Part shown: positions 52,551 through 52,665 of the stretch, piece after piece
Layout of the letters: each line of letters begins with the position of its first letter
Position numbering within the stretch: position 1 is the stretch's first letter
Source of the DNA: Candidatus Lutacidiplasma silvani
GTDB taxonomy: Archaea; Thermoplasmatota; Thermoplasmata; Lutacidiplasmatales; UBA184
Reading direction: 5' to 3'
DNA: 64,000 nucleotides
Assembly (NCBI GenBank): GCA_022750295.1
Contig: JAKIVZ010000009.1
Location: 1 to 64,000 of the forward strand
Notes under the pieces: generated by a model
Told to the model about the DNA's origin: nothing
The model's input: the letters and a program-made list of their open reading frames with translations, nothing else
Databases searched by the model: none
Translations under genes and position numbers: made by a program

Positions 52551-52665
52551 GCGGGGATGGCCCAGCCCGGCAAGGCGCAGGATTGCTAATCCTGTGGTGA
52601 TTTCACCTCGGGGGTTCAAACGGACGCCGGAACCGACCGGCGACCGGAAATTCCCCCTCCCCGCG
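52551..52665 (+). tRNA. tRNA-Ser (anticodon GCT) with predicted T-loop intron at 52621..52651
   Basis: Acceptor GCGGGGA(52551-52557)/TCCCCGC(52658-52664); anticodon arm CAGGA-TTGCTAA-TCCTG; long variable arm GGTG..CACC; T-stem GGGGG(52610-52614)/CCCCC(52653-52657) with TTCAAA, a 31-nt insertion, then T. Confidence 0.85.

What the first reader, a model, noticed from the sequence alone, without database searches (positions are those of the whole stretch)
52551..52665. tRNA-Ser(GCT) with a non-canonical 31-nt intron in the T-loop
Seen: every arm of a class II tRNA-Ser is present, but the T-arm GGGGG-TTCAAA is interrupted and resumes as T-CCCCC-TCCCCGC-G after cggacgccggaaccgaccggcgaccggaaat. The insert forms a 6-bp hairpin CGCCGG-AACCGA-CCGGCG extended by GG/CC, and TTC pairs with GAA next to 3-nt bulges, giving a relaxed bulge-helix-bulge. 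Excising 52621-52651 restores the 7-nt loop TTCAAAT (intron after ~position 59). T-arm introns are known mainly in Thermoproteota; one here would imply a splicing endonuclease with relaxed specificity, and gene callers can miss such tRNAs.
Basis: partly seen in the sequence, partly recalled or inferred. Interest (0 to 1): 0.8.

Follow-up and report, generated by a model that had tools for sequence, protein, structure and literature searches.

The report
T-loop introns riddle an archaeon's tRNAs
The tRNA-Ser(GCU) gene carries a real 31-base intron in its T-loop, and it is one of at least 14 tRNA genes in this acid-soil archaeon (Lutacidiplasmatales, Thermoplasmatota) interrupted at the same point, although the organism has the type of splicing enzyme thought to handle only ordinary anticodon-loop introns.

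Summary
Removing it leaves the normal T-loop TTCAAAT (intron site 59/60). It is the only tRNA-Ser(GCT) found in the genome.

It is not a lone oddity. The genome has 14 tRNA genes with an intron at exactly 59/60, 4 D-loop introns (two genes carry both) and only 3 canonical ones. In all 29 same-genus Ser(GCT) genes read (window included) the intron is present. Its sequence drifts, but its hairpin and bulge-helix-bulge are kept by compensatory changes. Other genera of the family share the same set of interrupted tRNAs. Scattered cases occur across Thermoplasmatota; tRNA-Lys(UUU) of Methanomassiliicoccales has the same D-loop plus T-loop pair.

Site 59/60 and BHB splicing are known, mainly from Thermoproteota and Nanoarchaeota. 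What is new, as far as the open literature searched here shows, is the lineage and the enzyme. The single EndA is the two-unit alpha'2 type without the CSL/ASL loop linked to relaxed specificity, which reviews say goes with canonical introns only. Splicing itself is inferred; no RNA data were available.

The parts
52518..52525 (+). Archaeal TATA-box-like CTTTAAGG, 33-26 bases upstream of the tRNA
   Evidence: A C(T)TTAAGG-like box lies at about the same distance in most Ser(GCT) orthologues whose other flanks have diverged
52551..52620 (+). 5' exon of tRNA-Ser(GCT): acceptor strand, D arm, anticodon arm (GCT at 52585-52587), long variable arm, T-stem 52610-52614, T-loop positions 54-59 (52615-52620)
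   Evidence: ARAGORN calls Ser(gct) once the insert is removed
52621..52651 (+). 31-nt intron at site 59/60: GG 52622-52623 pairs CC 52644-52645; CGCCGG 52625-52630 pairs CCGGCG 52637-52642; loop 52631-52636
   Evidence: covariation over 28 distinct same-genus sequences
52615..52618 (+). Exon side of the BHB central helix: T54 T55 C56 pair with intron GAA 52647-52649; A57 faces G52646
   Evidence: in this family A57 faces G in 61 of 66 genes and G57 faces C in 21 of 21
52619..52621 (+). 5' three-nt bulge AA^C; inferred cleavage after A59 (52620)
   Evidence: cut position inferred from the known BHB rule
52650..52652 (+). 3' three-nt bulge AT^T; inferred cleavage before T60 (52652)
   Evidence: cut position inferred from the known BHB rule
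52652..52665 (+). 3' exon: T60, T-stem 52653-52657, acceptor strand 52658-52664, discriminator G73 52665

Best explanation
This is the only tRNA-Ser(GCU) gene found in the genome, interrupted by a protein-spliced archaeal bulge-helix-bulge (BHB) intron at 59/60. In the precursor the T-loop bases T54-C56 pair with the intron's GAA, leaving a 3-nt bulge on each side. The homodimeric alpha'2 EndA cuts within each bulge and the RtcB ligase joins the exons, giving the normal T-loop TTCAAAT. T-loop bases 54-58 are nearly identical in all tRNAs, so one intron design (a hairpin ending in a GAA-like stretch plus a 3-nt bulge) can fit almost any tRNA. I infer that this is how the same site came to be interrupted in 14 tRNA genes. 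The set was established by the family's common ancestor and has been kept since. Shown: the sequence, motif, conservation, covariation, distribution, presence of EndA and RtcB, and no intact copy found. Inferred: expression, the cut sites, and that alpha'2 EndA does the cutting.
For: Exact intact tRNA after excision. Fourteen T-loop introns in the genome, all leaving TTCRAAT: twelve high-scoring covariance-model hits, Leu(TAG) at a lower score, and Ser(CGA) joined across two contig ends. Ser(GCT) intron present in all 29 same-genus genes parsed, with compensatory changes in the intron helix and a conserved upstream TATA-like box. Named genomes AcS13-54, AcS5-107 and SubAcS15-31 share nearly the same isotype set. 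Single EndA gene with conserved Y291, H299, K330 and R323; RtcB present. AGC/AGT codons occur in both endA (5) and rtcB (3), so a reader of AGY codons is needed.
Against: No RNA-seq or tRNA-seq is available. The genome is a MAG, 90.9% complete, so a missing intact copy cannot be fully excluded. A published view holds that alpha4 and alpha2 enzymes act only on canonical BHB at 37/38 (PMC4090602), and the Ser(GCT) central helix is 3 bp with A57 facing G rather than the standard 4 bp.
Confidence: 0.93

Rival explanations
1. The locus is a tRNA pseudogene or insertion scar, and another tRNA-Ser(GCU) does the work.
For: Gene callers reject it as it stands.
Against: No other tRNA-Ser(GCT) in the assembly. 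Insert kept in place in all 29 genes parsed with covarying helix, intact exons and conserved upstream box. Thirteen sister genes have the same arrangement.
Confidence: 0.02
2. The insert stays in the mature tRNA as an extended T-arm (a structural variant rather than an intron).
For: The hairpin is stable, and non-canonical tRNA shapes exist in nature.
Against: The flanking TTC/GAA helix and two 3-nt bulges form a BHB that a plain extension would not need. The loop after removal is always TTCRAAT. The orthologous insert in an order-level relative is only 13 nt (L234), and sizes vary from 13 to 46 nt across the phylum. The T-loop is needed for D-loop contacts.
Confidence: 0.03
3. The intron is real but is excised by something other than alpha'2 EndA alone, for example an unrecognised second nuclease or a partner protein that relaxes EndA.
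For: alpha'2 enzymes are described as narrow (PMC12397907, PMC4033280), and about half of the T-loop introns here have only a 3-bp central helix.
Against: Only one PF01974 gene is present. Homodimeric EndA of Ferroplasma cleaves minimal BHB substrates (PMC8707768), and many introns here have the strict 4-bp form. Unknown partners cannot be excluded by sequence.
Confidence: 0.1

Closest known systems
Non-canonical tRNA introns of Thermoproteota and Nanoarchaeota, including site 59/60 (reviewed in PMC4090602)
   Same: BHB introns outside 37/38; 59/60 and 20/21 are both listed sites; several introns per gene; many tRNA genes affected
   Different: Host is Thermoplasmatota; one site (59/60) dominates (14 of 21 introns); enzyme is alpha'2, not (alpha-beta)2 with a CSL loop
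Large-scale tRNA intron spread in Thermoproteales (Sugahara 2008; Fujishima 2010, cited in PMC8450103)
   Same: A clade-wide burst of introns in many different tRNAs
   Different: Here the orthologous introns are shared across genera of one family and diverged in sequence; recent copying between tRNAs was not tested
ARMAN-2 epsilon2 EndA and its varied tRNA introns (PMC12397907, PMC6379350)
   Same: Non-canonical introns outside Thermoproteota handled by one self-contained EndA polypeptide
   Different: ARMAN EndA has three units and the ASL loop; this EndA has two units and no such insertion seen at sequence level
Ferroplasma acidarmanus homodimeric EndA (PMC8707768)
   Same: Euryarchaeal homodimeric EndA able to cut a minimal BHB
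   Different: Studied on designed substrates; natural T-loop introns were not the subject

Membership tests
Archaeal BHB tRNA intron, site 59/60 | Removal restores a standard cloverleaf with a 7-nt T-loop | tested here: met
   Loop TTCAAAT; ARAGORN calls Ser(gct) after removal
Archaeal BHB tRNA intron, site 59/60 | Two 3-nt bulges around a central helix at the exon-intron junctions | tested here: met
   AA^C and AT^T around TTC/GAA; 3 bp with A57 facing G, so slightly short of the strict 4 bp
Archaeal BHB tRNA intron, site 59/60 | Structure conserved by compensatory change among relatives | tested here: met
   28 distinct sequences, 91% paired, 19 extra pair types, above slid and shuffled controls
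Archaeal BHB tRNA intron, site 59/60 | Cleavage by EndA and exon ligation | not testable with these tools
   endA and rtcB are present; no RNA data
alpha'2-type EndA | One polypeptide with two fused EndA units, the second catalytic | tested here: met
   353 aa with two PF01974 stretches and PF02778; aligns along AFU EndA residues 19-292; Y291, H299, K330 invariant over 30 relatives. Oligomeric state not testable here
Broad-specificity EndA ((alpha-beta)2 with CSL, or epsilon2 with ASL) | CSL/ASL insertion with a conserved lysine in the catalytic unit, or a three-unit chain | tested here: not met
   No insertion before the catalytic unit's N-terminal helix relative to AFU or M. jannaschii EndA; two units only. 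Sequence comparison only; no structure was modelled

The most novel reading that the evidence does not exclude
Alpha'2 EndA of this Thermoplasmatota lineage has become a broad-specificity enzyme without a CSL/ASL loop, accepting T-loop and D-loop BHBs with a 3-bp central helix. The near-universal TTCRA T-loop then served as a general landing site on which one intron design spread to about a third of all tRNA genes.
Probability: 0.45. Interest if true: 0.75.

Novelty: new variant of a known kind. Interest (0 to 1): 0.62.

Why it matters
Reviews tie the kind of EndA to the kind of tRNA intron: alpha4 and alpha'2 enzymes with canonical introns in few genes, CSL- or ASL-bearing enzymes with non-canonical introns in many. 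This lineage breaks the rule: 18 of its 21 tRNA introns are non-canonical, 19 of 45 tRNA genes are interrupted, and the only EndA is alpha'2. It offers a natural, testable system for what sets EndA specificity and how tRNA introns spread. It also has a practical side: tRNA callers without BHB support lose about a third of the tRNAs in these widespread acid-soil archaea, which would distort tRNA counts used to judge genome quality and studies of decoding.

Tried and rejected
R1 also scores intronless tRNAs (up to about 62 bits), so its counts were only trusted at E <= 1e-10 or after reading the sequence. The ARAGORN tRNA-Gly(CCC) at 37992-38083 is probably a false hit: Rfam does not support it and it lies in coding-like sequence. 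Kaneta 2018 on EndA and intron diversity is not in the library. Literature searches for T-loop introns in Thermoplasmata or Methanomassiliicoccales found none described, but subscription papers and GtRNAdb were not searchable. No structure of EndA was predicted; the sequence evidence was judged enough for its type.

Full report
What is there. The window holds a class II tRNA-Ser(GCT) at 52551-52665 with a 31-nt insert at 52621-52651 in the T-loop. All arms are intact. The precursor fold reproduces acceptor stem, anticodon stem, T-stem and the insert's hairpin. Read as a BHB, T54 T55 C56 pair with GAA of the insert, A57 faces G, the 5' bulge is AA^C and the 3' bulge AT^T; cutting after the second base of each bulge (the known BHB rule) gives the loop TTCAAAT, that is site 59/60. 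ARAGORN and Rfam's default search miss the gene.

It is one of many. A tRNA search of the whole genome (2.10 Mb, 29 contigs, 90.9% complete) gave a series of truncated weak hits. Reading them showed the same break after TTCRAA in tRNA after tRNA. A covariance model of ten of them found more. The tally is 14 T-loop introns at 59/60: Ser GCT, GGA, CGA; Arg TCT, TCG; Glu CTC; Asn GTT; Gly TCC; Gln CTG; Ala GGC; Asp GTC; Lys TTT; His GTG; Leu TAG. Ser(CGA) spans the end of contig C8 and the start of C15, which overlap exactly by 55 bases. Four D-loop introns occur in iMet, Arg(GCG), Lys(TTT) and Leu(TAG), the last two in addition to T-loop introns; Arg, Lys and Leu have a 4-bp BHB helix. Three canonical introns are in Met, Tyr and Leu(TAA). 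By my count, 19 of 45 tRNA genes are interrupted, by 21 introns.

Conservation. Same-genus Ser(GCT) genes were retrieved by the 5' exon alone, so without selecting for the intron. All 29 genes parsed (window included) have a 30-35 nt insert at 59/60 with the same bulges. The order-level relative G038 has only 13 nt, with a perfect TTCA/TGAA helix. The intron helix covaries. A TATA-like box is conserved upstream while the flanks are not. Shuffled controls do not correct for relatedness, but the slid control keeps it.

Spread. Every same-genus and same-family genome listed has several strong hits. Outside the family most positive genomes have one or two, and 139 of 300 class genomes pass E <= 1e-10. 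Other classes of the phylum have up to five per genome, and 15 loci's hits, inside and outside the class, were all confirmed by reading. Large groups of complete genomes (for example f19) have none above this strict threshold. Named genomes tie this to taxonomy: AcS13-54, AcS1-3, AcS5-58, AcS5-107 and SubAcS15-31 have 11-13 hits. The AcS5 and SubAcS isolates are genomes of the Lutacidiplasmatales paper (PMC9287336), and the window's genome shares a genus with several of them, since contig coordinates match G242, G256, G010 and G025. Four Methanomassiliicoccales-related genomes have tRNA-Lys(TTT) with both a D-loop and a T-loop intron, as the window's genome does. The simplest reading is an ancient Lys double intron and a later expansion in Lutacidiplasmatales.

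The enzyme. One endA gene (353 aa) lies at G000:C10, next to an orotate phosphoribosyltransferase-like gene (that neighbour's name is my reading of its sequence). It carries two fused EndA units, aligns along the length of A. fulgidus EndA and of PDB 5x89 (5x89 is, to my knowledge, from M. kandleri), and keeps the catalytic Y, H and K and the bulge-gripping R in all 30 relatives aligned. No insertion sits where the CSL and ASL loops are described. RtcB ligase is present.

Against the literature. Site 59/60 is already listed for archaeal introns, with Crenarchaeota and Nanoarchaeota as the rich sources (PMC4090602). The same review says Euryarchaeota with alpha4 or alpha2 enzymes have few introns, at the canonical position only. 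The 2025 structural paper says alpha'2 enzymes lack the loop that allows non-canonical bulges (PMC12397907). tRNAscan-SE 2.0 found its additional non-canonical introns mostly in Crenarchaeota and Thaumarchaeota (PMC8450103). Nothing found describes this lineage. A reservation: an alpha'2 enzyme may simply cut a good BHB anywhere, as Ferroplasma's does on designed substrates (PMC8707768); then the position rule, not the motif rule, is what fails.

Unexplained detail. In this family, position 57 is G facing C (21 of 21) or A facing G (61 of 66), almost never A facing U, whereas elsewhere in the phylum A faces U in 6 of 8. Many of the 61 are orthologues, so these are not independent events. A purine-purine opposition at the edge of the central helix may be selected, perhaps for EndA binding.

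Noticed in passing
L021 (G000:C3:12100-12184): Orphan tRNA-like gene with good stems, a long variable arm and A73 (Leu-like) but a loop CTGAAGA reading anticodon GAA (Phe), although a normal tRNA-Phe(GAA) exists (L012). No full-length match in 22 relatives.
   Followed up: partly
L204 (G000:C16:215806-215942) and L295-L298: tRNA-Lys(TTT) carries a D-loop intron (20/21) and a T-loop intron (59/60) both here and in four Methanomassiliicoccales-related genomes, suggesting an ancient double intron.
   Followed up: partly
All T-loop introns of family f1 (for example window 52618 and 52646): A57 faces G in 61 of 66 genes and G57 faces C in 21 of 21; A-U is almost absent in this family but common elsewhere in the phylum.
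   Followed up: partly
G000 whole genome: No tRNA-Trp and no tRNA-Pro(GGG) were found; they may lie in assembly gaps or carry introns that these searches miss.
   Followed up: no
End of contig C8 (88450-88504) and start of C15 (1-55): The two contigs overlap exactly by 55 bases inside tRNA-Ser(CGA), so they are probably neighbours in the genome.
   Followed up: yes
window 37992-38083: ARAGORN's tRNA-Gly(CCC) here looks like a false positive in coding-like sequence; a well-formed Gly(CCC) is at G000:C13:1058-1129.
   Followed up: partly
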